Shown in pieces: positions 1 through 18,587 of a DNA stretch of 38,175 bases; position 1 is the stretch's first letter; the number at the start of each line of letters is the position of its first letter. Source of the DNA: Candidatus Desulfatibia profunda (GTDB lineage: Bacteria; Desulfobacterota; Desulfobacteria; Desulfobacterales; UBA11574); assembly GCA_014382665.1 (NCBI GenBank), contig JACNJH010000101.1, forward strand, positions 1 through 38,175, written 5' to 3'. The translations under genes were made by a program, and so were the position numbers. Under the pieces are notes generated by a model. That model was not told the origin of the DNA. It ran no database searches and was given only the letters and a program-made list of their open reading frames with translations.

Positions 1-2
1 AT

Positions 3-488
3 CGCGCCAAGAGCTTGGGGCAAAAGCTTGTTGCCGCAGGATACCGATCGGCTTCACTGCAGGGAAACCTTTCCCAGAAACGCCGCCAGGCAGCACTGGA
101 CGGCTTTCGCGACGGGACATTTCAGATTCTGGTGGCCACCGATGTCGCCGCTCGCGGCATTGACGTTACCCGGATTTCGCATGTCATCAACTATGATATC
201 CCTTCCACCCCCGAGGCATACATTCACCGCATCGGACGGACAGGCCGGGCAACTCGCAGCGGCGAAGCTTTTACCCTTGTTACCGGAGAAGACAAGGATA
301 TGGTGCGCGCCATCAATCGAATCATCGGTTCTGAGATCGAGCAACGCACCTTATCAACTTTTGACTACGGATCACCAGCGCCTAATCGTGAAGGCCGCTC
401 GCAGTGGATCGGAAAACCGCAACGGAAATTATCCGGAGTGAAAAAGGGACGGAACAAAATGAAGTCACTCTCGAACTTTTTTATTTAG
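3..488 (+). CDS. DEAD-box ATP-dependent RNA helicase, C-terminal part (5' cut by window)
   Basis: This is the C-terminal RecA-like domain of a DEAD-box RNA helicase; the reading frame is open from base 3, so the start lies outside the window. Visible family motifs are ATDVAARGIDV (motif V) and YIHRIGRTGRATRSG (motif VI, with the arginine fingers), which close the ATP site in DEAD-box proteins that unwind short RNA duplexes. After motif VI comes a short basic tail (QRKLSGVKKGRNKMK) of the kind seen in RhlE-type helicases, which probably helps RNA binding. Which DEAD-box subgroup it belongs to cannot be settled because the DEAD domain is missing. It converges on recQ. Confidence 0.9.
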   Translation, partial: RAKSLGQKLVAAGYRSASLQGNLSQKRRQAALDGFRDGTFQILVATDVAARGIDVTRISHVINYDIPSTPEAYIHRIGRTGRATRSGEAFTLVTGEDKDMVRAINRIIGSEIEQRTLSTFDYGSPAPNREGRSQWIGKPQRKLSGVKKGRNKMKSLSNFFI

Positions 489-518
489 ACAAAACGTTAC
501 CGAATATAGAGAAAAGAC

Positions 519-538
519 GGGGGATATGGCTATCCCCC
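519..538 (+). terminator. Hairpin between convergent helicase genes
   Basis: GGGGGATA pairs perfectly with TATCCCCC over 8 bp with a 4-nt loop (TGGC), 31 bp after the RNA helicase stop. There is no clear run of T after it on either strand, so it is a plausible but weak intrinsic terminator between the convergent rhlE-like gene and recQ. Confidence 0.35.
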
Positions 539-574
539 TATGGTAATGTAGCCGCTGCAGATAGCAAACACGAA

Positions 575-2419
575 TCAACAATTTTTGGGCTTCCCTAGAT
601 GCTCCAAGATGAGACCCAAAAACTTTTCTCCGTAAAGCTCTAATTTCCGTTCACCAATCCCTGAGATGCGGCTCATTTCTTTTAAAGAGCGCGGCAAATA
701 CGCCACCAGTTCTTGCAAGGTACGGTCATGGAAGATGATATAAGGCGGCAGGCCCTGTTCTTTTGCCAGCTTCAGGCGCAAAGCGCGCAGTTTCTCCCAA
801 AGATCGGTTGAGGCTTGATCAACAAATTCGTTTTCATATTTACGGGTTGTGCGAGGCGGGTGCTTTGCTTTTATCGGCATTGGATCTTTGCGGAATCGGA
901 CGCTTTGTTCTCCCCGCAAAACAGGCCAGCTTTTATCCGTCAGTTTAAAGCCCCCTTTGCTCTCCAGATCTACGAAAAGGAGACCGGCGGCAATCATTTG
1001 GCGAAAAATCGACTTCCATTCTTTTTTGGAAAGGTCCGCGCCGATACCGAATGTGGAAATCTTATCATGCCTGAAGCGCTGAATTCTCTCATTGGTTGAT
1101 CCGCACAGCACATTGCTGAGATATTCAGCGCCGAAACGCTGTCCGGTTCGATATACACAGGAAAGTGCTTTCTGGGCGGCAACGGTTCCATCCCAGGTTT
1201 CGATGTCACCATGACAAGTATCACAGTTTCCGCACGCTTTGGGAAGTTCTTCACCAAAATAGCTTAACAACACCTGCCGTCGGCATTTAACGGTCTCACA
1301 ATATCCTAAAAAGGCTTCCAGTTTGCGGTGCTGGATGCTTTTATACTGTTCATCCCCTTCAGAGCGGTCCAACAATGCTCGAACGGCAATCACGTCGGAT
1401 AAACTGTAGATCATCCAGGCATCCGCTTTTTGGCCGTCACGTCCCCCGCGACCGGTTTCCTGATAGTAGGCTTCCAAACTTTTCGGCAGATCAAGGTGCG
1501 CAATGAAACGCACATCCGGCTTATCAATTCCCATCCCAAAGGCAATGGTTGCCACAATAATTACGCCCTCTTTATGGAGGAATCTTCGCTGGTGCAGCAA
1601 ACGGGTTCTTTGATCCATACCTGCATGATAAGGAAGCGCCGTATATCCTTTTTCAGACAGCCAGGCGGCGGTTGTTTCCACTTTTTTGCGGGTTAAGCAA
1701 TATACGATTCCCGAATCTTTTGGATGTTCCGCATTCAGAAAATCCAAAAGCTGTTTTTTCCATTTTTCTTTAAGCTCGATACGGTAACAGATGTTGGGGC
1801 GGTCAAAACTTGTGATAAATTGGGCCGCTTTCTCCAAATTCAGCTTTTTTATTATTTCTTTACGTGTGACCGGGTCGGCGGTGGCGGTCAGAGCAATCCG
1901 GGGCACTTTGGGAAAACGTTCGGATAAAATGGAAAGCTGAAGGTATTCCGGCCTGAAATCATGTCCCCACTGAGAAACACAGTGCGCTTCATCAATGGCA
2001 AACAAAGCAACTTGCGTATGATTCAGCAAATCTAGAAATCGATCGGTTGTCAATCTTTCAGGGGCAACGTAAACCAGATCCAGATTCCCGGAAACCATCT
2101 GCTTTTCAATGTCACGGGCGCTCTGCGGCGACAAGCTGGAGTTTAGAAAGGCTGCCCGGATGTTCAGTTGACACAGGGCATCCACCTGATCCTGCATCAA
2201 GGCGATAAGGGGGGAAATCACGACGCCGACACCGCTTTTCAGCATGGCCGGGATCTGATAACAGATCGATTTGCCGCCGCCGGTCGGCATCAGAACCAGC
2301 GCATCACGGCCGGCCATCAGATGCCGGATGATCTCTTCCTGGTTTTCCCAAAAGCTGTCATAGCCAAAACAGGATCGCAAAATGTCTTGCGGCGAAGTAT
2401 GGTTATGAATATGTTTCAT
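575..2419 (-). CDS. recQ: ATP-dependent DNA helicase RecQ
   Basis: 3'-5' DNA helicase for recombination and repair of stalled forks. The 614-residue protein has the full RecQ layout: Walker A PTGGGKS at about residues 45-51, the DEAH box at 143-146 followed by the RecQ-specific aromatic-rich loop ([13 protein letters not shown]), the second RecA lobe with [12 protein letters not shown], a zinc site of the RQC region (CETVKCRRQ, then CGNCDTC) near 370-400, and a C-terminal HRDC domain ending near residue 605. Its length matches E. coli RecQ (609). It is probably transcribed alone; the upstream methyltransferase on the same strand is about 140 bp away. Confidence 0.95.
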
Positions 2420-2559
2420 CTAAAATGTTTCTCTTTGCTGAACATTTCATAACATTTAACTGTCATTACCCTAACGTTGCAAAAGCTAAGGGTGCCGTAG
2501 ATCCCCCGATAACGGGATCTTCGTTTCACTTTGGCATGTTTTTTATGCAACGACAGGGA

Positions 2560-3132
2560 TTATTTTTGCAGGACATAAGCAAGCCACATATCACCGGAGC
2601 CGGTCTTGGAAACCGACTTTGAAAAATTGCGTACCCTGAAACCGAGTTGCTCGAACATTTGCCGTAAAGCTTCGTCCTGCCACAGGTAAAATACCCGGCC
2701 GTGCGAACCTGTGCGGGTTCCTTCACCCTCCTTTAATGTTACCAGCACAATTCCATGGCGGGTCAGGGCCGAGGTGATGTTTTTGAAAACCGCTGAAAAC
2801 CGGTCCGACGGAATGTGGATAAGAGCGCCGGCCAGCAGGATCGCATCGACCTCCATAAAGGAAAAATCGTAGGTTTCAAAGTCGTCTTCGATGACTTCGC
2901 ACCCGGCATTCTCGCGGGCCAGTTGCGCCAGACCCGGCGATCGTTCCAGGCCGATGACCTCAAAACCGCGCTGTTTAAACCAGAACAGATCGCGGCCGCT
3001 GCTGCAGCCTGCATCCAGGATAAACGCCTCCGGCGAGAGTCTTGCGGCCAAAGGATCCAGAAACGATGACGGATCAATTGAAAAGGTCTTTTCATGGTAA
3101 GCCTGGTAATTTTCCTGATAGTAATCGGTCAT
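2560..3132 (-). CDS. Class I SAM-dependent methyltransferase
   Basis: A 190-residue small-molecule type methyltransferase. Motif I is seen as ILDAGCSSGRD (about residues 39-49), which binds SAM; an acidic residue ends the next strand (VIGLERS), and EDDFETYDF followed by AILLAGALIHIP are the later SAM-site strands. The C-terminus is FYLWQDEALRQMFEQLGF, typical of the Methyltransf_11/25 group. The substrate cannot be read from sequence or neighbours. The start lies just after a loose GGACTC stretch on the minus strand. Confidence 0.8.
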   Translation of the reverse strand: MTDYYQENYQAYHEKTFSIDPSSFLDPLAARLSPEAFILDAGCSSGRDLFWFKQRGFEVIGLERSPGLAQLARENAGCEVIEDDFETYDFSFMEVDAILLAGALIHIPSDRFSAVFKNITSALTRHGIVLVTLKEGEGTRTGSHGRVFYLWQDEALRQMFEQLGFRVRNFSKSVSKTGSGDMWLAYVLQK

Positions 3133-3403
3133 AATATGAGTCCTTTCAGTTGAATCGAGTTAAGCATGGATAAGATTTGCAGGATTAATCATTATCAGGT
3201 GGTCCTTTAAGTGTCCATAAAAAAAACGACATCGGTTTTTAGGTGAAATCCATCACAAATATCTTTTCACTTGATCCGTATCGTGCTAATCTTAATAAAT
3301 TTGTAATAACCTGAATCTTACATGAAAGTTGATCAGAATCTTTACCTAAATTGAATACAGCGGGCCCATTCAAAATTCAGGTAAAGGCGAGTTCATCAGG
3401 TGT

Positions 3404-4888
3404 TTGATGTTTAGTATCATGCCGGCAAAACTCAATTTTCAGAGAAGATTTTCAGCCATACTGGTTTATGGAAGGCCTCCATTGGTCTTTGGCGGAATGC
3501 TCTGCGCCCTGGCGGTCATGTGGAACCGCAGTCCGCTGCTCTATACCCTGGGAGTAACGCTGCTTTTTATTTCCATGAGCTTCGACCTGATCGACGGATG
3601 GTTTGCCACCCGCTTTCAGCTCCATTCCACTCTGGCCCATCTCGCCGACCGCGTCATGGACAAGATCGTCTTTTCAATCATTTTCCCGCTGGTGGCGGTC
3701 GGCAGCATGTGGCGCCTTCTGTTTACTTCGCCGGCTGGTACCAAGGCTGAATTACTGCACGGCATCTTGGTTCTGATCTTGTGCGTAACGGTTCTTATAC
3801 GCGACAATTTTGCCCACTTCATGCGTTTTTTTGCCATGCGCACGGGACCGGAACCTGAACCAAGAGAGTTTACTCGACTCAGAACCGTCGTAGCCGCACC
3901 GGTTGGCACCCTTTTATACGCGCATGCTTTTTTTGTTCCAAGCAGCCTGGATTCCAGTATCTATGCCTGGATTTCCTGGCTGGGCAATCTGCCCCTGCGT
4001 GTGTTGTTTATAATAGAAATACTCTTTTTAATCATCAACTTCGGATCTATCGCCGCGTACTGCCGTAAATACGGAACCTACTGTTTGGACGAAATCTGTG
4101 ACGAGGATGAACTCCTGCGGCGAAACATTTTGGCCTTTTTCCCCAATGCCTTGACCATCATGAATGCCATGATGGGGCTGCTGGCCGTGCTGTTTGCCTA
4201 TCAGGATCGCATTCGGGAGGCCTATCTGTTCCTGATCGGGGCTGCCATCTTTGACAAACTGGACGGGGCTCTGGCTCGAAAATTGGGACTGACGGAACCG
4301 CTGCCCGGCCAGGACCGGCCGCGCTATATCAGCCTGGGAGGTATTCTGGATGACATCGCCGATGCCGTCAGTTTCTGCATTGTCCCGGCCTGGATCTTTT
4401 ATCTGTTGCTCGCAGACTTTGCCGATCCCGTGATCCGGCAGCTTCCGGTGGGACTGATTGCCGTGCTGTATGCCGGTCTGGGGATCGGCCGCCTGGTCTA
4501 CTTTACCCTTGACCGCACTCCCATTCCCGGATTCTTTAAAGGCATGCCGACCCCGGCCGCGGCCTTACTGGTGGTTGCACCGTTGATCATGTTCAATCAG
4601 TCCGTTCAGGAAGCTTCGGAATTGGCCCGCTATTGGGGCATTTTCTGTTTCGGACTGATGATTTTCGGGGCGGTGATGATGAACTTTTATCCGATACGTT
4701 ACCTGCATCTCGGACGCTTTATGGACCGGCATTCCTGGTTCGGCCGGCTGAACATGCTGCTGTTGGTTGTCTCCATATTAACGCCCTATCTTGGATACGT
4801 GGCCTTAATCTATATGTTCCTGTATGTCCTTTCGCCCCTGATCACCGGGCGCATCCTGCCGAACCAAGAAAAAACAGACCAAAAATAG
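3404..4888 (+). CDS. Tandem two-domain CDP-alcohol phosphatidyltransferase
   Basis: A 494-residue integral membrane protein carrying two CDP-alcohol phosphatidyltransferase domains, enzymes that move a phosphatidyl group from CDP-diacylglycerol to an alcohol such as serine, glycerol phosphate or inositol. The first signature is at 61-86: DLIDG, then AT (where AR is usual), then A78 (where G is usual), D82 and D86; all four catalytic Asp are kept. The second is at 284-320: DKLDGALAR, then G312, D316 and D320, with a loop between R292 and G312 of about 19 residues instead of 8-9. Single-domain family members are about 180-250 residues, so this is a fusion or duplication. The second domain, lying among many membrane helices, looks most like phosphatidylserine synthase. 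Substrates are not known. Confidence 0.8.
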   Translation: MMFSIMPAKLNFQRRFSAILVYGRPPLVFGGMLCALAVMWNRSPLLYTLGVTLLFISMSFDLIDGWFATRFQLHSTLAHLADRVMDKIVFSIIFPLVAVGSMWRLLFTSPAGTKAELLHGILVLILCVTVLIRDNFAHFMRFFAMRTGPEPEPREFTRLRTVVAAPVGTLLYAHAFFVPSSLDSSIYAWISWLGNLPLRVLFIIEILFLIINFGSIAAYCRKYGTYCLDEICDEDELLRRNILAFFPNALTIMNAMMGLLAVLFAYQDRIREAYLFLIGAAIFDKLDGALARKLGLTEPLPGQDRPRYISLGGILDDIADAVSFCIVPAWIFYLLLADFADPVIRQLPVGLIAVLYAGLGIGRLVYFTLDRTPIPGFFKGMPTPAAALLVVAPLIMFNQSVQEASELARYWGIFCFGLMIFGAVMMNFYPIRYLHLGRFMDRHSWFGRLNMLLLVVSILTPYLGYVALIYMFLYVLSPLITGRILPNQEKTDQK

Positions 4889-5832: not shown

Positions 5833-5970
5833 CACCTTTTCTTTTGTCTGAACAATAGTCGGTTTCTGCTTGATCCCAATCAATTCCTTATATATTTTAA
5901 AGTGATTGTCAAAATAACGTTCCGTTTTACCAATCTCAGAACCATTTTTTAGGTCAACTGAACTGTTAAA

Positions 5971-7083
5971 CTAACCCGGAAAAGGCTTCAGGTTCGCCAG
6001 CTTTTCTAGAAATTCATCATATTGGTCGATCAGATTTTCCCAGGCAAAATGCTCCATGGCTTTGGAGAGATTTCGACGCAGTATCTGGAACCGGGAAGTG
6101 TTCGATATCCGCAAGGCAAGTTTGTCAACCAGATCGGCCTGGTCTTGATAGAGAACCTCTGAATGGTAATTTTGCGGGATGATTTCCGGATAGGAGAGAC
6201 GAGCGGGCAAAAGCGGGATGCAACCGTAACGGATCGCCTCGACCACCGCCATACCGAAATTTTCCTGTTTGGCGGTGCTGATTACAATGGCGCCGCGTTC
6301 CAGCCATTCACAGTATTTTTTCCGGGAAGGTTCATGGCCGTAGCGAACGATCCGGTGTCCGTAACGCTGTTGGGCGGCAATAAACTCTTTGGGGACCATC
6401 TGAAAATTTTCTCCCAAAAGCGCCAGGCGAAAATCGAGGTTTCGCTCGAGTACCGCATCCAGAGCGCAAAAAAAGTCTGCCGGATTCTTATCAAATTCCC
6501 AGCGGTGATTCCAGATAATCAGGGGAGGGGCTTCGGTGTGAGGCGGAAAATCGGATAAAGCGCCTTGAGCAGCAGGAAACAGGCATCCGGGGTAGAGGAC
6601 GTGTGCTTTTTTGCGGATAACCTCGACCACCCATTTGGGCCGGTATTCGGGCATCATGTTCAAAAAAGCGGGAAGATTTGAGAAAAACGCATCAAAATGG
6701 GTTTGCGAATTAAAAAGAACTCGATCGGCGGCCAAGGCGGTGGTGATGTCGGTGAAACCGAACTGAAAGTCCCGGGACTCACCGGGCGCCAGGGGATAGG
6801 TAAGCTGGTTTTCGTGAAAATATACCAATGACGGCGGACAGGATGGGCCGCAAAGCGCTTTAAAATCCGACAGGCTCATGAGATTGGTGCTGATGAAGCC
6901 GTCATAGTTTTTCAAGGAGGGAATTTTTTTGGCAAAATACAATGCCGCCCCGCGCATGCGCCACTTCCAGAAGCGGGACGGCATTGTGAACAGATAAATT
7001 TCGTGTTTGGAATGCGAGATTAAACCTTGAGCAAAATTTCGATGTGAGCCGCCGAAAAAAGGCTCTAAAAAAATAAATTTCAA
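5971..7083 (-). CDS. DUF3524/GTDC1-type glycosyltransferase (tRNA-queuosine mannosyltransferase family)
   Basis: A 370-residue GT-B glycosyltransferase. The N-terminus (FLEPFFGGSHRNFAQGL, then a WKWRMRGAALYFA block and YFHENQLTYP) matches the DUF3524 domain of animal GTDC1, now known as QTMAN, which adds mannose to queuosine-34 of tRNA-Asp. The C-terminal half has the nucleotide-sugar site of GT4 enzymes: ENFGMAVVEAIRYGCIPLLP with its conserved Glu. The length fits full-length members. The family match is strong; the exact sugar and acceptor in this bacterium are inferred. It sits near, but is not coupled to, the PP2C gene on the same strand. Confidence 0.8.
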   Translation of the reverse strand: MKFIFLEPFFGGSHRNFAQGLISHSKHEIYLFTMPSRFWKWRMRGAALYFAKKIPSLKNYDGFISTNLMSLSDFKALCGPSCPPSLVYFHENQLTYPLAPGESRDFQFGFTDITTALAADRVLFNSQTHFDAFFSNLPAFLNMMPEYRPKWVVEVIRKKAHVLYPGCLFPAAQGALSDFPPHTEAPPLIIWNHRWEFDKNPADFFCALDAVLERNLDFRLALLGENFQMVPKEFIAAQQRYGHRIVRYGHEPSRKKYCEWLERGAIVISTAKQENFGMAVVEAIRYGCIPLLPARLSYPEIIPQNYHSEVLYQDQADLVDKLALRISNTSRFQILRRNLSKAMEHFAWENLIDQYDEFLEKLANLKPFPG

Positions 7084-7149
7084 ACGGATGTCTCCGCTAT
7101 AAAGCAGTCCTAATAACTTAAATAATTAATCCAGCAACGAATCAACCAT

Positions 7150-8253
7150 TTAACCGGATTTTTCTATAAGTGTTTTTATCATCTCCTGCTCATCCGGGGA
7201 TAAAGGTTCAAATTTTACTTCAATTCCCTCGGGGCTTCGACTGATAACTTTGCCGGTGATCATGAAGGGACTATGGCCTTCGCCGACGGAAAAGGTCATC
7301 ATGATATCCTGCCCGATTGAAAATGATTCCCCGGTTTCGATAAATACGCCGTCGCGGTTTATGCTGCGGACGAAACTCTGGTAAGAACCGTCCTCGGTAT
7401 CGTATTCGACGGCGATTTTCGTTTTTTCCCGGGATATCTCGTCTTTCAGTTCAAGTTGGTCATCCTCCATTTCAAGGAGCAGGCCGTCGTCGGAAACCTC
7501 CTTAATCTTCAAGACGATAACGGTTATATTATCGTGTCCCCTGCGTTCATTGGAAAGATCCACTAAGGCTCGGCAGGCCTGATCAGGCTGTTTTTTAAGA
7601 ACGATATCACGGATCTCATTGGCAGAGACATTGTCACTTAACCCGTCGCTGCAGATTACCATGATGTCGTCCTTATGAATCTGAAGTTCGCTGGTATCGG
7701 GCTTTACCGTTTCTTCAACACCCACAGCCCGTGTCAGCATGTGTCGAAACTGTTTCCCCAACGGTTTGGCTCCCTTGGGGGCTATGGCTGCATGTTCGGC
7801 CGCCCAGGTATGCGGGACGTATAGGTTCTCGACGGCTCCTTTTCGAATCAGGTAGACCGGGCTGTCGCCCACGTTGGAGACAATCAGGGTATTGCCGGTT
7901 AAATAAATCGCCGACACGGTGGATCCCATGCCCTGGTAAGACTCCGAGCTCTGGGAATGCTGATATACCGATCGATTGGCCCGATGGATGCCGGCCACAA
8001 GATAGTTGGCCTCCTTGGAAAGCGAACTGTCAAAGGTGTCCATATCATCCGCTGTCATTTCAGGGTTGAATGCTTTCATGTGGTCTCGCAGGACTTCCAC
8101 CACCATTTTGCTGGCGACCTCGCCGGCCTTGTGTCCACCCATGCCATCGGCCACCACATAAAGTCGCATGTCATCATTTAGAAAGTAAGAGTCTTCGTTA
8201 CTTTCACGCCGTCTGCCGACATCGGTTATTCCAGCGGATTCAACTACTATCAT
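7150..8253 (-). CDS. PP2C-type protein phosphatase fused to a PilZ-like domain
   Basis: Residues 1-250 are a PP2C (PPM) serine/threonine phosphatase: ESNEDSY with D21, the metal-site ADGMGGH (D36-H41), GSTVSAIYL near 110-117, SDGLSD (D203) and GHDNITVIVL (D241), so all core metal ligands are present. Such enzymes usually oppose Hanks-type kinases; no kinase gene lies nearby. Residues about 271-365 resemble a PilZ domain: a basic start (SREKTK), the short SINRDGVFIET block in place of the D/NxSxxG motif, then VGEGHSPFMITGKVISR and VKFEPLS. The RxxxR c-di-GMP motif is degenerate, so ligand binding is uncertain. An Asp/Glu-rich linker (251-272) joins them. Confidence 0.85.
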   Translation of the reverse strand: MIVVESAGITDVGRRRESNEDSYFLNDDMRLYVVADGMGGHKAGEVASKMVVEVLRDHMKAFNPEMTADDMDTFDSSLSKEANYLVAGIHRANRSVYQHSQSSESYQGMGSTVSAIYLTGNTLIVSNVGDSPVYLIRKGAVENLYVPHTWAAEHAAIAPKGAKPLGKQFRHMLTRAVGVEETVKPDTSELQIHKDDIMVICSDGLSDNVSANEIRDIVLKKQPDQACRALVDLSNERRGHDNITVIVLKIKEVSDDGLLLEMEDDQLELKDEISREKTKIAVEYDTEDGSYQSFVRSINRDGVFIETGESFSIGQDIMMTFSVGEGHSPFMITGKVISRSPEGIEVKFEPLSPDEQEMIKTLIEKSG

Positions 8254-8340: not shown

Positions 8341-8387
8341 ATCCAGTTAACAACTCAACGAATCGACCATTTAACGAAGTTAAAAAA

Positions 8388-8595
8388 CCTAACCTGAGCG
8401 TTTCAAATTTTAAGAATGAACGATTTTATATTATTTTAAAGGAATTTTATCGATTTATATTCTTAAAATTTGAAACCCTTCGGGATTGCCGATCTTACCG
8501 CATCTACGGCGTCAGATGCCGTCACGCATAGCCGACTATAGCGAAACGACATCTTCCTTGTATCTACGGCAACCTCGACAATCGCTCAATTTAGG
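8388..8595. mobile_element. 208-bp MITE-like element with 13-bp terminal inverted repeats
   Basis: The ends CCTAACCTGAGCG (8388-8400) and CGCTCAATTTAGG (8583-8595) are inverted repeats matching at 11 of 13. The element has no coding capacity. Both ends recur at 36051-36091 in opposite orientation: 17 of 19 bases at one end and 21 of 22 at the other, with about 169 bp of interior missing there. That shared architecture argues for a repeat family. No target-site duplication is clear. Confidence 0.6.
8400..8476. repeat. Perfect 18-bp inverted repeat inside the MITE-like element
   Basis: GTTTCAAATTTTAAGAAT (8400-8417) is matched exactly by its reverse complement at 8459-8476. The 41-nt interior is AT-rich and contains a smaller CGAT/ATCG pair. 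It would form a long hairpin on either strand. Confidence 0.85.
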
Positions 8596-9000
8596 AAAAA
8601 TATAGATGAAATAGAACCTGTGTGTCAATGATGTTCATCATTAAACCGGATTTCTCAACAGCCGGATTCATTCGGAACAAAATGGCAGGGGAGTTGATTG
8701 AACGCTCCTTAGTATGCCGGATACGATCAAACACTATATCTTGATGATTTATTTTGTTTGACATGCTGGAGCAATTTATTTATATATATGAAATTTAAGC
8801 TAAATTTTATCACTATCAATTTTAAGGGGCGCTCATGGAAAAAACGCTATTCATTTTTAATTGGAAGATAAAAAGCAAAACAAAATATAATAGATAATGC
8901 CATAAACGAAATTCTCAATGGCGGCACACCGCGGAAAATCAAAGCTGAATATTTTTGATAGAAAATTGCTAACCGGTAGCGATTAGAAAAGAGAGCGCAG
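8596..9000. other. AT-rich intergenic region before the histidine kinase
   Basis: No convincing gene. It contains a perfect 7-bp palindrome AATGATG-TT-CATCATT near 8626-8642 and the sigma-70 promoter listed separately. A 20-codon frame at 8835 is too weak to call. Confidence 0.5.
8758..8786 (+). promoter_or_regulatory. Sigma-70 promoter of the hybrid histidine kinase
   Basis: TTGACA (8758-8763), a 17-bp spacer, then TATATA (8781-8786). The elements and spacing are near consensus. It would give a leader of about 200 nt before the kinase start at 9001. Confidence 0.55.
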
Positions 9001-11674: not shown

Positions 11675-13324
11675 TTACATTGAAAATTTTTTGGCCAGGT
11701 CGTTGTCAATCACGTAGATGCAGACTTCCTTGGCGCCTTCTCTTTCGGATTCGCTTAAAATCTTTCGTCGGCGTTTGGCCGTGAATCCCTTACGGTTTTC
11801 TTCGGAAAGCCACGGGGGGATATGTCCCGCGTAGATTTCCATCTTGAGCAGCAGAAGGTTCTCATCGCAGAACAAACGGTATTTTTTCGGATCGTCGATC
11901 CATTCCAACAGGGTCTCGGACCGGCTTTCCAGGCGGGAAGAGATAATTACGCGGGCAAAATTATGAAGCACTCGGGGTAAAAAAGTTTCGTCGATATGTT
12001 TGCCGAAAATATTGCGGTAAATATCAACCTCGGTGTTGAGGTCCAGAACATAAGGGATATGGATATATTCGATCCGGTCTGAAAAGCTCTGAATATCCTG
12101 GATGTTTTTTTTATCTTCCGGGTTCATGAGGGCTATCAGAAGTGAATTCACGTTTTCTTCGATATCTTCCACCTTGTGAACCCCTTCGCTGATAATGTTA
12201 TGCAGTTCTATCAGCCGTTCGATATTGTTCGACTTGATGTCCATGAGGGCGTAAATGCCGTTGTTGGTTTTAGCGTATTGGGAGAAAATGTATCTGACCT
12301 TGTTGCTGTCCCTGAGCAGTCCGTTAATCCGGCTCTGGAGCATGGGATTGCTCATAATGTTCTGGCGCAGGGGTTTATCGCCGGGGTTGAAAACGCTGAT
12401 GCCTTCTCCTAATCGCCGGTTGAATTGGTATGGGCGGGCATACAGCATCCTGATTACTTCCTGCGGGCTTTTCAGCCGGTTTAACAGGGCCCAGTAGATG
12501 GAGTTGCAGATGGTGCACGGGGGCTGCCTGAAGACCCAGTCATATTCTTTTTCAGTGAAAAGTTTCCATTTGAATTCGTCATTTAACAGCAGGTCGTCAA
12601 AAAACGTGCGGCGGTAATGCTTGGGGATCATGAGAATGGGATGATCATGGCTGGGACAGGGGACCTCGATATATGCGCCGGTAAAATGTGGTGAAAACGG
12701 ATCAAAAGAATCGGCATACTTGCCGCGTGGAAAAGACGGCTCAACGTCTTCAACCTCGGATCTGATTCCTGCCCGCGGCCAGTCATCTGAAAGCTGAATC
12801 CCGCTGTCGTATATTGGAGCGGGCTCGTGTTCTGCAAATGTGTCCAAAAGATTGCGGTCAAGTCTCCAGACGGCTTCATAGCGCAAACCCTGCTCGGTTT
12901 TGGTATATTCCTCGAATTTCAAAAGCAGGTTGTTCAGAAAGGTGCTCTTTCCGCATCCGGGAGGGCCGTCAAAAATATAAATCATATTTTGCTGTGCCCC
13001 GCGTTTCATGGCTTCGACATGATTCATCAGACGGTTGGCAAAGAGCCGGTCTGCGAAAAAGGGGTGGTCCGTGCCTTCAACGAAAAGCGAGCAGCAATCG
13101 TAGTTGACAAAATGGATTGATTCCGGATCATCCGGATATTCATCCGTCCCTTCTTTGACGTAGCTCTTGATCATGTCATGAAAGACCTGAAATACATTGC
13201 GCATGACGGCGGCCGGATTTTTTGCCAAAATCAGGAGAAATTCCTCGAAAGGAATCACCGGTTGCTGGTGTCGCTCCCTCATGCTGCGATCAAAATTAAG
13301 CATAGCCTTTTTTGCTTGTTCCAT
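11675..13324 (-). CDS. PrkA-like AAA+ ATPase, second paralogue of the operon
   Basis: A 549-residue protein related to the PrkA (YeaG) AAA+ ATPase/kinase group. Walker A is GPPGCGKST at about 117-125, within the same surroundings as PrkA (a membrane-less AAA core, long helical inserts). Later blocks such as LMDIKSNNIERLIELHNIISEG and SDRIEYIHIPYVLDLNTEVDIYRNIFG resemble the PrkA sensor region, where a similar segment reads DRVYIVKVPYCL in E. coli. A Cys pair (PPCTIC) precedes the middle domain. It is the last gene of the PrkA-DUF444-SpoVR operon, 20 bp after SpoVR. Its difference from the first PrkA suggests a specialised partner rather than a spare copy; that is inference. Confidence 0.75.
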   Translation of the reverse strand: MEQAKKAMLNFDRSMRERHQQPVIPFEEFLLILAKNPAAVMRNVFQVFHDMIKSYVKEGTDEYPDDPESIHFVNYDCCSLFVEGTDHPFFADRLFANRLMNHVEAMKRGAQQNMIYIFDGPPGCGKSTFLNNLLLKFEEYTKTEQGLRYEAVWRLDRNLLDTFAEHEPAPIYDSGIQLSDDWPRAGIRSEVEDVEPSFPRGKYADSFDPFSPHFTGAYIEVPCPSHDHPILMIPKHYRRTFFDDLLLNDEFKWKLFTEKEYDWVFRQPPCTICNSIYWALLNRLKSPQEVIRMLYARPYQFNRRLGEGISVFNPGDKPLRQNIMSNPMLQSRINGLLRDSNKVRYIFSQYAKTNNGIYALMDIKSNNIERLIELHNIISEGVHKVEDIEENVNSLLIALMNPEDKKNIQDIQSFSDRIEYIHIPYVLDLNTEVDIYRNIFGKHIDETFLPRVLHNFARVIISSRLESRSETLLEWIDDPKKYRLFCDENLLLLKMEIYAGHIPPWLSEENRKGFTAKRRRKILSESEREGAKEVCIYVIDNDLAKKFSM

Positions 13325-13344: not shown

Positions 13345-14892
13345 CTAGATGACTTCACGTGAGAGTTGCCGGTCTTTCATGGTATAGACGACCCGCTGCC
13401 ATTCTATTTCAGGTTCTTTTTGCCTGTCCGGTTGCATCTTGGTGAAATCGGCAAAAGCTCCGGGTGTCTGATCGGGCGAAACGGAAACGACTTCACTGGT
13501 TTCCAACTGAACCGGACCTCCCCATAAATATTCGATCCCCATCATGGTATTGGCAATGAATTCCTTTACCAGCGGTTTTCCTTCAAAACGGTGAACAAGG
13601 TAGAGATGATGGTCAACGCTTTTCTCAGGATCCACCTCGATCTGCGGGGGGTGATACAAGGCATCTTCAATCATTCGGCGAAAGTCCTGCGCCTTTCGGC
13701 TTTTGACAAAATATTCCCATACCATCCGCTGGGTGTTCAATCGTTTGCCGGCCACAAACAGGTTGCAGTGGGTCATAAAATCCTGATCAAGAAACGTGTG
13801 AACAAACATGGAATCACAGAAGTTTTCACGAACCTTGAAGATAAACTCCCGTCCCTTGCCGGTGGAGGCGTCATATTTTTCCCGCTGGTTCGCGTCCGCA
13901 AGGCGCTGGAATTCATAGGCGAGTTTTCCCTTTTCGGCCATTTCTTCGATGTAGTAGAACAGGCGCATTCCCAAAGCATAGGGGTTCAATCCCACGCGGG
14001 GTAATGCCGTGACCCTGGAATTGACCCGTGCGAATTCCACTTCATGCCCCTGAATGCGTTCGTCCTGGAGAAAAAGCGTTTCGTGCCAGAAACTGGCCCA
14101 GCCTTCATTCATGATTTTGGTTCGGATCTGTGGTTGAAAAAACAGGGATGTGTTGCGCACCACCTGCATCACCGTTTTCATCCAGTTGTTTTTTTCCTTG
14201 TTCAAAAATTCGGAATGTTCCATTAAAAATTGGATCAGGTCTTTTTTACGGAGGGTTTTATTGTAGCGCTCGATTTCCTTGATGTATTCATTAATTTTGA
14301 CGTTTTCAACGGACTGTAAAAACACGTCGAAGTAAAAATCGCGTCGTCGGGAGCGGTCAGGTGTCTGCGGCCGGTTGAACTGCGAAAGTTCGCCATGGTA
14401 TCCGACGAGGTTGTCAATCCCCCGCGCGAACTCAATCACGTAATCCACCCATCGGCCTTTTTCGGATCTGAGCCTGGCGATCACCCGTTTATCTGCAAGG
14501 GCCTGCCCCGTGAAGTCATATTCCCAGGTATGTCGAAAAAACAGATTGTTTTGAAAAAAATCGATGTGCGCCAGAACATGGTAGAAAATCATTACGTTCA
14601 GCCAGTCCGGGTTGTTGTCATTGTAAAATGAAATGGCCGGTCGGGTGTTAATGACGGTTTCATAAGGATTATCGGGGTATAGTTCGTACCGGCCTTTTTC
14701 GCGAAGGACTTCCACATCGTGCACCCAGTAGTCGTAAAGGGTCGGAATCATCAGCTTCGGCGAGATTTCCAATAAGTCGCGGTTGGTTACAATGTATTCC
14801 AAAGTTTCATCCTGAAACCGCAAACCGGCCGCGCGGGCCCTGACCTTGCATCCTTCCATGATATTCTTGGTATGTTGATCGATGAGTTCCAT
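13345..14892 (-). CDS. spoVR: SpoVR family protein
   Basis: A 515-residue homologue of B. subtilis SpoVR and E. coli YcgB (510 residues). Diagnostic blocks are HVLAHIDFFQNNLFFRHTWEYDF, matching the family's HACYGHNSFFKNNYLF region, and IMNEGWASFWHETLFL, matching VMNEGWATFWHYTI; the latter has the HxxxH-like metal-protease look but no proven activity. In many bacteria the gene travels with prkA and the DUF444 gene, which are linked to stationary-phase and stress physiology. Here it sits in that exact company, 41 bp after the DUF444 gene. The gene appears intact. Confidence 0.93.
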   Translation of the reverse strand: MELIDQHTKNIMEGCKVRARAAGLRFQDETLEYIVTNRDLLEISPKLMIPTLYDYWVHDVEVLREKGRYELYPDNPYETVINTRPAISFYNDNNPDWLNVMIFYHVLAHIDFFQNNLFFRHTWEYDFTGQALADKRVIARLRSEKGRWVDYVIEFARGIDNLVGYHGELSQFNRPQTPDRSRRRDFYFDVFLQSVENVKINEYIKEIERYNKTLRKKDLIQFLMEHSEFLNKEKNNWMKTVMQVVRNTSLFFQPQIRTKIMNEGWASFWHETLFLQDERIQGHEVEFARVNSRVTALPRVGLNPYALGMRLFYYIEEMAEKGKLAYEFQRLADANQREKYDASTGKGREFIFKVRENFCDSMFVHTFLDQDFMTHCNLFVAGKRLNTQRMVWEYFVKSRKAQDFRRMIEDALYHPPQIEVDPEKSVDHHLYLVHRFEGKPLVKEFIANTMMGIEYLWGGPVQLETSEVVSVSPDQTPGAFADFTKMQPDRQKEPEIEWQRVVYTMKDRQLSREVI

Positions 14893-14933: not shown

Positions 14934-15845
14934 TTATTCGCTGATGAGTTTTTTAATACCTTCGATCAGGCGCGGCTCGTCGGCATCTTCGTTGATGGTA
15001 TCGAGCCGGATTAATTTCGGTTTTTGCTTCAGCAATCCGGAGTTGTTCAGGTATCTTTCCACGGCAGTGTTATTGAGCGAACCGCTGGTGTGTTCAGCAA
15101 TGGTGATTCCGACCCGGGCGGCATAGGTCAGCATCGTCTCCAGTTCCGGCAAGGCTTCTTTGCCCTCGGTGTCCCAGTCGTCGCCGTCGGTACCGTGGAA
15201 AACATATATATTGTAATCTTGGATCAGGTTTTCGTTTTTGACGATTTGGTTGACAAACCGGTAGGCCGAAGCCACCTGTGTGCCGCCGGCGACCCTTAAA
15301 TTATAATAGGTGTAAAAATCAGGGACCTCCTTGGCCTCGGTATCATGGAGGATAAAACGGGTTTCAACCTGCCGGGCGTACTGGTAGAGCAGCCAGCTGT
15401 AAATCAAGACGTGCTGGGTCACCACCACTTCGGTGGCTTTGCCGATCATGGAGCCGGAATAATCCCGCAAAAAGAAGATCATGGCCTGGGATTCGTAATC
15501 CTTTTCGCGCGAGAGAATCCGGTAGATTTTGTCGGCGGGCGAAATTAAAAAACGGGACGGATCGATGTCGCCCGGATCCGGCAGGTTACCCAGGTGGATA
15601 TTGGTTTCAACAATTTTTCTGAGGGTGGCTTTTTTATCCAGATGCTGGCCGAATCCGCGGTGTCTGTCGGTCAGGTCATAGGTGTAGCGGGTAAGCGCTC
15701 GCTTTTTGCCCTTGTCCTTGAGGTTGGGAAGCTCAAATTTTTCCGTGAGAATTTTACCCAGATCATAGGCACTCGACTCTATTTCATGGGGACTGTCTTC
15801 TCCCTGGCCGGGTCCGGCTCCGCCGCTCTGCTCCGGCGCGCGCAC
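14934..15845 (-). CDS. DUF444 (YeaH/YhbH) protein, C-terminal part after an in-frame stop
   Basis: Residues cover the vWA-like C-terminal domain of the DUF444 family: IFFLRDYSGSM (the MIDAS-type DxSGS), RFILHDTEAKEV, VAGGTQVASAY and FHGTDGDDWDTEG all have counterparts in E. coli YeaH (FCLMDVSGSM, IRHHTQAKEV, ETGGTIVSSAL, AASDGDNWADD). It lies in the same frame as 15849-16388, separated only by TAA at 15849-15851 and one codon. The GTG at 15845 is the first start after that stop but has no ribosome binding site at a proper distance (an AAGGAG lies about 18 nt away). It is therefore most likely the second half of one broken gene, unless translation restarts or reads through. Confidence 0.85.
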   Translation of the reverse strand: MRAPEQSGGAGPGQGEDSPHEIESSAYDLGKILTEKFELPNLKDKGKKRALTRYTYDLTDRHRGFGQHLDKKATLRKIVETNIHLGNLPDPGDIDPSRFLISPADKIYRILSREKDYESQAMIFFLRDYSGSMIGKATEVVVTQHVLIYSWLLYQYARQVETRFILHDTEAKEVPDFYTYYNLRVAGGTQVASAYRFVNQIVKNENLIQDYNIYVFHGTDGDDWDTEGKEALPELETMLTYAARVGITIAEHTSGSLNNTAVERYLNNSGLLKQKPKLIRLDTINEDADEPRLIEGIKKLISE

Positions 15846-15848
15846 CGG

Positions 15849-16388
15849 TTATTCACCGATGATCTCTCCTTCTTCTCCCTCTCCGGATCCGCCCAATTGC
15901 CCGTCTTCTTCCGGAGGCCTGCGCAAGCGATCGTGAATGAATTTTTCCTCCACCGTGGTCGGCACCACAACGATTTTGTCTTTGCCGCTTCTGCCGGGTT
16001 TGACCATCCGGCCCACGCGTATTTTTTTGGGGAATCCGTCTTTTTCTCTCTGTTTATCCTTTTCCAGCAATTCATCGATGCTGCGCAGGCAACTGATATA
16101 GGTTCCGACGGGTCTGGGCATGTCCTGCAATTGCATCAGGTCGTGGTGGTCGTAAACATTTTTGGGACCGTCGGGCAAAAACTCGATACCGGCTTCACGT
16201 TGTGATACCCTGTCTTGGGGAAAGTCATGGAAGTCTTCGGCGTAAAGCTCCTTTTCGATATTCTGCGCCTGTTCCGGCGTCAGACCGCCGGCTTTTAAGG
16301 CATGGTAATATTCAAGCAGTTTGCGGTTCATGCTGTTGACCTTCAATTTGTCCGGCAGAGCACCAAGAGCCACGATTTGCGGGTGCAT
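15849..16388 (-). CDS. DUF444 (YeaH/YhbH) protein, N-terminal part ending at a premature TAA
   Basis: A 179-codon frame that runs straight into the DUF444 C-terminal half. It contains the basic block KIRVGRMVKPGRSGKDKIVVVP and the Gly/Glu-rich linker (GGSGEGEEGE) typical of this family before its conserved core. The start may be ATG 16331 (KVNS-MNRKLLEYY), which has AAGG 9 nt upstream, instead of ATG 16388, which has none. The joined frame would be about 465-483 residues, close to the family's 400-430. A CAA-to-TAA change would explain the stop. An inverted repeat (16418-16509) lies just upstream. Confidence 0.75.
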   Translation of the reverse strand: MHPQIVALGALPDKLKVNSMNRKLLEYYHALKAGGLTPEQAQNIEKELYAEDFHDFPQDRVSQREAGIEFLPDGPKNVYDHHDLMQLQDMPRPVGTYISCLRSIDELLEKDKQREKDGFPKKIRVGRMVKPGRSGKDKIVVVPTTVEEKFIHDRLRRPPEEDGQLGGSGEGEEGEIIGE

Positions 16389-16417
16389 TACCGGTTGTTA
16401 ATAGCTTTCAAAGCCTT

Positions 16418-16509
16418 TTGGTGTCAGGTTTCAGGTGTCAGTAAAAAGAAACGCATTAGCTGAGCGAAGCATCCGCTAAGGATAAACCTGAACACTGACA
16501 CCTGGCACC
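16418..16509. repeat. Imperfect inverted repeat between prkA and the DUF444 gene
   Basis: GGTGTCAGGTTTCAGGTGTC on the left faces the reverse of ACCTGAACACTGACACCTGG on the right; about 13 of the first 15 bases pair. A nested TTAGC/GCTAA pair sits in the middle. It reads like a short non-coding repeat inserted in the operon. It may act as an attenuating hairpin. Confidence 0.6.
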
Positions 16510-16526: not shown

Positions 16527-18395
16527 CTACTTCTCGTCTTCCTGCGTGCAGAAATATTCGATCGTCTTCTGGGCACATGTTCTGCAGTAGCCAAGCTTGG
16601 TGAGCATGGTGTTGATCATGCGGTCGTAAAGCTTCTGATTTTCTTCGTTGGTACGATTGGCCAGCGCTCCGATCAGACTGCCGGCACCGGCGATATCCGA
16701 CTTGAGCCGGACATCGGTGACCGCTTTGACCAGTTCCAGGTTGTCCATAAAATCATAATTCGGATTCACGGAGATTTTCTGGCCGTATATTTTTCGAATG
16801 GACGTTCTGAACGATTCGCATTGTTCGATAGTTTTGAGTCCCAAGCGTTCTTCAACACTTTTGATGTAACGTTCATCGACCTTCAAGGCTTTCAGTTCCC
16901 CGGTTTGCGGGTTCTTGTATTTCCACATTTTGTCGGGACCCAAATTTTCAGCGTCAATGCCGATAATCATGTTGACATAATTCATGACGTCTTTTCGAAT
17001 CGCCAGGGGTTCATCCATGTATGCGTTGAACATCTCGGTCATGATGCGTTCCCGGTACAATCCTTTGGCAATCTTAAGGTCTTCTATGTATTTGATCCGG
17101 TCATTGGCATCGGTCACATAGTCCAGCACAATCCGTTCCAGCGCCTTGAAAATGTCATAGGCAAACATGCATTTGCCTTCATTGGTTTCGGAACTTTCGA
17201 TCAGCAGTTGGATGGCTCGGCTGAGGTTGCGCTGGCCAAGACCCTTTTGGCCGAAGCGTTGGATGATATCCGGGTTTTGGTTGAGCGTGTCGATGACTTC
17301 GGCAAGGGTCTTGATGCTTTTTTCACCGGCCACTTCGCCGGCGGCCAGTTTCATGGTTTCAATGGGCGTCAGTTTTTCAGACTTTGGAAGCCGGGTCAGA
17401 ACCACGCCCACGGAGGCCGCGTAATTCAGGTTGGGATCCTGGTGGAGATTTTCCCGGGTCAGGGTGGTTCTGGCTTCGCTGCCGATGGTGTACGCCGTGA
17501 GATCTTTCTGCAGTTTGTAATTGGTATTATGCGAAATGTAGGAGATTCGACATCGGTCTACAATGGGTGCTTCTTCCTTTTCGGCTAAAAACCGGTTGAA
17601 TTCCATATTGTTGCTGGTGGCGACGATCAGGGTGTCGATGGGCCATTTAAAGCCGTCGATTTCAATAGTTCGGTTTTGGATGACGCCCAGGTAAACCTGA
17701 ACCAGGTCTTTTTTGTTTTTGAAGATTTCGTCGCTGAAGTGAATGCCGCCGCCGGCGACACGCGCCAAGGCCCCTCGTCTTAGATCGAAACGGTAAGGAT
17801 TGTTGGTGTCGGTGATGTGGAGCAGCCTCTGGATGGACTCCTCTCCTAAAAGATCGACGGACGAAGACGTGATCTTGTCCTTGGCAGGATATTTGCCTGT
17901 GACGGTTCCGAGGCTTTCGGTCAGCGGCACCGGTAAGATCTCAACGAATTTGAGCATTTCATCGATCTGGTTGTCCGTATAAGTCCGGATATTGTTCCAG
18001 ATGTATCCGCTGCAGGCTCCCATGGGACGGTAATTATCGTAAAACGTTTCTATCTGGGCATCGGAAAACCCGATCTCTTTGGCCAGAACCGCCTTGTTTT
18101 CATCCGGATCTTCAAACAGATTCATCGCCAGGATCATAGGATCCTCGTAGGTTTGAGATTCGATGGAGGTGATTCTGCCGTAATTGCCCAATTTCCCCAG
18201 ATTGATGAAATTGAACGTGTATTTGCGATTCGTTTCTCTGGCAAGGAAAGCGCGATACTTGTTGCACAGAAATTCGATCAAAAAGGTTTTCCCGTTACCG
18301 GGTTCACCTACCAGCACATATGCCATTTCGGCCGAAGATCCGCACTCGGCCGCATCCTTGACATATGAGACAAAACTGTTGATCTCGTCATACAT
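16527..18395 (-). CDS. prkA: PrkA family serine protein kinase / AAA+ ATPase (lacks its N-terminus because of an in-frame TGA)
   Basis: Homologue of PrkA/YeaG, an AAA+ protein with reported serine kinase or protease activity. Visible features are Walker A GEPGNGKT (about residues 30-37), the Walker B-like HFSDEIFKNKK, TLIVATSNNMEFN (sensor 1 with Asn) and VDRCRISYI. A Cys pair (CRTC) lies near the C-terminus. The listed frame starts at ATG 18395, but the same frame continues upstream for 64 codons to ATG 18587, which has a strong GGGAGGT ribosome site; only a TGA at 18450-18452 intervenes. ATG 18395 itself has no good ribosome site. With the upstream part the length would be about 686, near E. 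coli PrkA (644). It is the first gene of the operon. Confidence 0.9.
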   Translation of the reverse strand: MYDEINSFVSYVKDAAECGSSAEMAYVLVGEPGNGKTFLIEFLCNKYRAFLARETNRKYTFNFINLGKLGNYGRITSIESQTYEDPMILAMNLFEDPDENKAVLAKEIGFSDAQIETFYDNYRPMGACSGYIWNNIRTYTDNQIDEMLKFVEILPVPLTESLGTVTGKYPAKDKITSSSVDLLGEESIQRLLHITDTNNPYRFDLRRGALARVAGGGIHFSDEIFKNKKDLVQVYLGVIQNRTIEIDGFKWPIDTLIVATSNNMEFNRFLAEKEEAPIVDRCRISYISHNTNYKLQKDLTAYTIGSEARTTLTRENLHQDPNLNYAASVGVVLTRLPKSEKLTPIETMKLAAGEVAGEKSIKTLAEVIDTLNQNPDIIQRFGQKGLGQRNLSRAIQLLIESSETNEGKCMFAYDIFKALERIVLDYVTDANDRIKYIEDLKIAKGLYRERIMTEMFNAYMDEPLAIRKDVMNYVNMIIGIDAENLGPDKMWKYKNPQTGELKALKVDERYIKSVEERLGLKTIEQCESFRTSIRKIYGQKISVNPNYDFMDNLELVKAVTDVRLKSDIAGAGSLIGALANRTNEENQKLYDRMINTMLTKLGYCRTCAQKTIEYFCTQEDEK

Positions 18396-18587
18396 GCCGA
18401 TAATATGTTTTTTTCCTGTGCGGAATATACTGAAATCATAGGTAGATTTTCAGTTCACCACTACTTTTTCAATGGTGCTTTCCAGAATCATCCGGGTCAC
18501 ACCCTGAAAGGCGTTTTCAAAGCGGCGATTTCCTTCTTTGACATGCACCAGATGGCGGTATAAGGCGGTATCGGATTTATTGGCCAT
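18396..18587 (-). pseudogene. prkA: N-terminal segment of prkA, cut off by an in-frame TGA
   Basis: From ATG 18587 the frame reads 45 codons ending EKVVVN, then TGA, then KSTYDFSIFRTGKKHIIG directly into the annotated PrkA start. The start is preceded by CGGGAGGTGTAAT, the best ribosome site in the operon. The sequence on both sides of the stop continues smoothly in composition and frame, so the stop interrupts one gene. A GGA-to-TGA change would do it. It would otherwise encode a 45-residue peptide. Confidence 0.75.

What the first reader, a model, noticed from the sequence alone, without database searches (positions are those of the whole stretch)
18396..18587. In-frame TGA near the start of prkA
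The translated frame from ATG 18587, which has the best ribosome site in the operon (GGGAGGT), runs 45 codons, hits TGA at 18450-18452, then continues into the PrkA coding frame. The two sides are in the same frame. It could be a pseudogenising mutation, a sequence error, or a real regulated stop. A single G-to-T change would make it from GGA.
Basis: seen in the sequence. Interest (0 to 1): 0.6.

Follow-up and report, generated by a model that had tools for sequence, protein, structure and literature searches.

The report
Recently broken prkA stress operon
The early stop codon in this bacterial stress-response gene is most likely an ordinary recent inactivating mutation: the next gene also carries a stop, a later gene has lost its end, and the genome's only other copy of the operon is broken too.

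Summary
The in-frame TGA at 18450-18452 is real in the assembly: ATG 18587, 45 sense codons, TGA, then 640 codons in the same frame. All ~94 other distinct homologues found run through this codon with Gly (two with Ala), never Cys or a stop, and share the conserved N-terminus, so ATG 18395 is not the native start. It is not an isolated oddity. The next gene, yeaH/DUF444, has its own in-frame TAA (15849-15851) where relatives have Gln or Glu. The fourth gene, a second PrkA-family gene, lacks ~223 codons including its PrkA C-terminal domain; spoVR is open. This operon is an extra copy, related to Desulfobacterales outside the host's family. The vertically inherited copy (contig C177) is worse: prkA lacks ~213 codons, yeaH is gone, spoVR is a fragment. 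No intact prkA1 or yeaH was found. Outside the stops there is no relaxed constraint (dN/dS 0.04), so the lesions are recent. A TGA-as-selenocysteine site and an alternative start are rejected. Assembly error at one base cannot be excluded without reads but explains the whole pattern poorly. Ordinary pseudogenisation of one operon; low-to-moderate interest.

The parts
16527..18587 (-). prkA1 (PrkA/YeaG-like AAA+ protein), 686 codons interrupted by TGA at codon 46
18450..18452 (-). in-frame TGA; Gly in all homologues except two with Ala
16527..18395 (-). ORF left if translation restarted at ATG 18395 (622 aa); lacks the conserved N-terminal 64 residues; the ATG lies in the stem of a predicted hairpin and has no evident Shine-Dalgarno
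14934..16388 (-). yeaH/DUF444 gene, interrupted by an in-frame TAA
15849..15851 (-). in-frame TAA; mostly Gln, otherwise Glu in homologues (conserved GE-Q-PVR linker)
13345..14892 (-). spoVR, 515 aa, open
11675..13324 (-). prkA2 (second PrkA-family gene), 549 aa; lacks about 223 codons and the PrkA C-terminal domain compared with the 763-aa homologues; junction near 11736-11739
16413..16495 (-). dispersed REP-like palindrome between prkA1 and yeaH

Best explanation
The TGA is a recent nonsense mutation, most simply from a glycine codon, in prkA1 of a four-gene operon (prkA1-yeaH-spoVR-prkA2). The operon is a second, probably horizontally acquired copy that is being lost. A ribosome starting at 18587 makes a 45-residue peptide and stops; there is no good restart site, so PrkA1 is probably not made from this locus, or only as an inactive form lacking its N-terminus. 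A second nonsense codon cuts yeaH, and a deletion removes the C-terminal domain of prkA2. The native copy on C177 is broken by deletions. The lineage therefore seems to be losing the PrkA1-YeaH module. Shown: the lesions, the two loci and their different ancestry. Inferred: loss of function, recency, and the order of events.
For: Gly (two Ala) at this codon in ~94 distinct homologues, all read through in one long frame. Second nonsense, TAA, in the adjacent yeaH where relatives have Gln or Glu. prkA2 in the window is 549 aa without PF06798, against 763 aa with it in C177 and in a sister genus. Native operon at C177, placed with Candidatus Desulfatibia and G009 (support 98) and next to PPDK as in G013 and G009, is eroded: prkA1 474 aa, no yeaH, only residues 423-515 of spoVR. 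Window prkA1 groups instead with a Desulfobacterales MAG (L037; support 99), while the window's flanking genes match the host's own family. The operon is patchy in the family: 4 of 23 relatives hold prkA1 strongly. dN/dS 0.04 and only one other departure at near-invariant sites point to recent lesions.
Against: No reads are available, so a consensus error at 18450-18452 or 15849-15851 cannot be ruled out. The rest of prkA1 and yeaH shows no decay; two nonsense codons among only three visible lesions is more than random mutation or error would give (P about 0.03). That statistic was chosen after seeing the data. Expression and function are untested.
Confidence: 0.8

Rival explanations
1. Consensus or assembly error in a metagenome-assembled genome created the TGA (and perhaps the TAA); the genes are intact in the cell.
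For: Fragmented genome (293 contigs); apart from the stops prkA1 and yeaH look under full constraint; no reads available.
Against: Two independent stops in adjacent genes with only one other departure at near-invariant columns is unlikely for random errors (about 3% of random changes are nonsense, 28% would be visible missense). An error would not explain the missing prkA2 domain or the eroded second operon. A crude control of 24 orthologues in ~570 kb of the same genome gave at most one gene that looks interrupted.
Confidence: 0.13
2. TGA is decoded as selenocysteine, making a PrkA selenoprotein.
For: The genome encodes SelA, and selenoproteins are common in this group of bacteria (general knowledge).
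Against: The site is Gly (rarely Ala) in all homologues, never Cys; no stable hairpin right after the TGA (z -0.4 for 60 nt); the strong hairpin found lies more than 50 nt downstream, beyond the usual bacterial SECIS distance (general knowledge). The second stop is TAA, which cannot be selenocysteine.
Confidence: 0.01
3. A regulated stop: either read-through at low level, or an upstream 45-codon ORF controlling a PrkA that starts at ATG 18395.
For: Frame, codon usage and low dN/dS are maintained downstream of the stop.
Against: No homologue has a stop there or begins at that ATG; the N-terminal 64 residues are conserved and belong to the PrkA AAA domain model; ATG 18395 has no evident ribosome site and sits in a predicted stem; the neighbouring gene carries a different, independent stop.
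Confidence: 0.05

Closest known systems
PrkA/YeaG, YeaH (DUF444/YhbH) and SpoVR/YcgB stress module of Escherichia coli and Bacillus
   Same: Same protein families: PF08298 and PF06798 for PrkA, PF04285 for YeaH, PF04293 for SpoVR. YeaG is reported to act in nitrogen starvation in E. coli (PMC4664914, abstract); a PrkA is required for sporulation and stress response in B. anthracis (PMC13001217, title and abstract).
   Different: Here it is a divergent Desulfobacterota type (NCBIfam PrkA equivalog score 44 against a cut-off of 576 for an intact relative), in a four-gene operon with a second PrkA-family gene, and this copy is broken.
Ordinary bacterial pseudogenes made by nonsense codons and deletions
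   Same: Single-base stops and deletions in a redundant or dispensable operon.
   Different: Nothing in kind; the only unusual point is that both copies of the operon are broken in one genome by different lesions.

Membership tests
PrkA (PF08298 + PF06798) | AAA_PrkA domain and PrkA C-terminal domain | tested here: met
   Both found in the post-stop ORF (34 and 128 bits against a cut-off of 25); an intact relative matches model positions 2-356 of PF08298, the window ORF only from position 65.
PrkA equivalog of NCBIfam (NF011999) | Score above 576 bits | tested here: not met
   25 bits for the window ORF, 44 for an intact relative: a distinct subgroup.
Bacterial pseudogene | Frame-breaking lesion absent from relatives | tested here: met
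   TGA in prkA1 and TAA in yeaH absent from all homologues.
Bacterial pseudogene | Relaxed selection along the gene | tested here: not met
   dN/dS 0.041 to the nearest homologue; one non-nonsense departure in 341 near-invariant prkA1 columns and none in 133 of yeaH, so decay is recent at most.
Bacterial pseudogene | Gene product absent or non-functional | not testable with these tools
   Needs proteomics or genetics.
Selenoprotein | TGA aligned with Cys in homologues | tested here: not met
   Gly or Ala only.
Selenoprotein | SECIS hairpin shortly downstream of the TGA | tested here: not met
   z -0.4 for the 60 nt from the TGA; no Rfam match there.

The most novel reading that the evidence does not exclude
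The stops in prkA1 and yeaH are not decay but maintained, read-through or restart switches that keep the PrkA-YeaH module nearly off; this would explain why the coding sequence around them is still fully constrained.
Probability: 0.03. Interest if true: 0.6.

Novelty: new member of a known kind. Interest (0 to 1): 0.22.

Why it matters
It gives a small, clean case of a stress-response operon caught while being lost: two copies of different ancestry in one genome, both without an intact prkA1 or yeaH, in a family where most relatives lack the operon. It also warns that an automatic annotation of a 622-aa PrkA starting at ATG 18395 would be wrong. It does not point to a new mechanism.

Tried and rejected
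Selenocysteine: rejected on the Gly/Ala column, the missing SECIS and the neighbouring TAA. Native start at ATG 18395: rejected because the N-terminus is conserved in relatives. A general code change: rejected because TGA is a normal stop for long ORFs in the genome sample and the second lesion is TAA. Contig from another organism: unlikely, since genes on both sides match the host's own family. A scan for interrupted genes from codon usage alone was too noisy to use; the first script failed. The homology control with G004 ORFs covers only 24 orthologues and is weak. A literature search for PrkA, SpoVR and YeaH together gave no paper.

Full report
Observation. On the minus strand the frame from ATG 18587, behind GGGAGGT, runs 45 codons to TGA at 18450-18452 and then continues in the same frame for 640 codons to the stop at 16527-16529. 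The next ATG is at 18395.

The stop is peculiar to this locus. Homologues were collected from 60 related genomes and from the GTDB contig set. At the aligned codon, 104 of 108 rows have Gly (GGC 47, GGT 29, GGA 22, GGG 6), two have Ala, and the two TGA rows are the window itself (about 95 distinct sequences). Nearly all relatives share the N-terminal segment FENAFQ-V-RMIL ... VVNGKTTYDF ... HIIG, and their reading frames cover the full ~686 codons. The intact relative fills the PrkA AAA model from position 2, while the ORF from ATG 18395 fills it only from position 65. ATG 18395 is therefore not the native start.

The lesion is one of several. Relatives carry prkA1-yeaH-spoVR-prkA2 in this order. 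In the window, yeaH has an in-frame TAA at 15849-15851 where homologues have Gln (72) or Glu (18) with a few other residues. spoVR is open over 515 aa. prkA2 aligns with the 763-aa homologue to residue ~518 and then jumps to residue ~742, losing the PrkA C-terminal domain. The junction (GAAGGCGCCAAG) shows short similarity between the two flanks in the intact gene, as expected of a slippage-type deletion; that is inference.

A second operon is broken as well. Contig C177 holds prkA1 with ~213 codons missing in frame (474 aa), no yeaH, residues 423-515 of spoVR, and an intact prkA2. PF04285 finds DUF444 only in the window operon. In Candidatus Desulfatibia (G013) and G009 the intact operon lies next to the same PPDK gene, and the C177 prkA1 groups with theirs (support 98). 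C177 is the vertically inherited copy. The window prkA1 groups with L037, a Desulfobacterales MAG, with support 99, while genes on either side of the operon match the host's own family. In G013 the LUD-domain gene and its neighbour lie together on a contig without prkA within the 1.5 kb available on that side. The window operon is best read as an acquired extra copy. Across both loci one spoVR and one prkA2 remain intact, but no intact prkA1 or yeaH was found. That the PrkA1-YeaH pair is what is being lost is inference.

Timing. Apart from the stops, prkA1 has dN/dS 0.041 against its nearest homologue, one departure (G456S) in 341 near-invariant columns, and yeaH none in 133. Decay, if real, is recent. 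Two nonsense codons among three visible lesions is more than random change predicts (about 3% nonsense against 28% visible missense; P about 0.026). This is a post-hoc statistic. It argues as much against random sequencing error as against slow neutral decay, and is compatible with selection for inactivation or with chance.

Rivals. The genome has SelA, but the Gly/Ala column, the absence of a hairpin next to the TGA and the independent TAA next door rule out selenocysteine for practical purposes. The strong hairpin at about 18360-18400 sits in coding sequence and takes in ATG 18395, which would hinder restart. A single-base consensus error remains possible; reads are the decisive test. A crude control (24 orthologues with G004) found at most one other gene that looks interrupted, on C210, so the assembly is not full of stops.

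Conclusion. This is an ordinary recent loss-of-function lesion within an operon being lost in duplicate. Interest is low to moderate, mainly for the double loss.

Noticed in passing
window 8385-8598: Interspersed ~210-bp repeat with an 18-bp inverted repeat near one end and GAGCG/CGCTC-like ends (MITE-like); matches in all 24 genomes of the family, 33-39 per genome in seven of them (37 in this one), 75-95% identical, no Rfam family; the half from position 96 to 211 also occurs alone.
   Followed up: partly
window 16413-16495: REP-like palindromic element between prkA1 and yeaH with pieces on at least five other contigs.
   Followed up: partly
window 1-541: 92-93% identical to another contig of the same genome (C99) and to G006, far above the usual level between these genera; may be a mobile element.
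   Followed up: no
L177 (G000:C210) 2320-4215: NADH-dehydrogenase-like reading frame with a TAG and a TAA inside its alignment to the homologue in G004; possibly another broken or split gene.
   Followed up: no
L117 (G000:C177) 5966-7390: The native prkA1 keeps an open frame of 474 aa although ~213 codons are missing; whether the shortened protein is made is unknown.
   Followed up: partly
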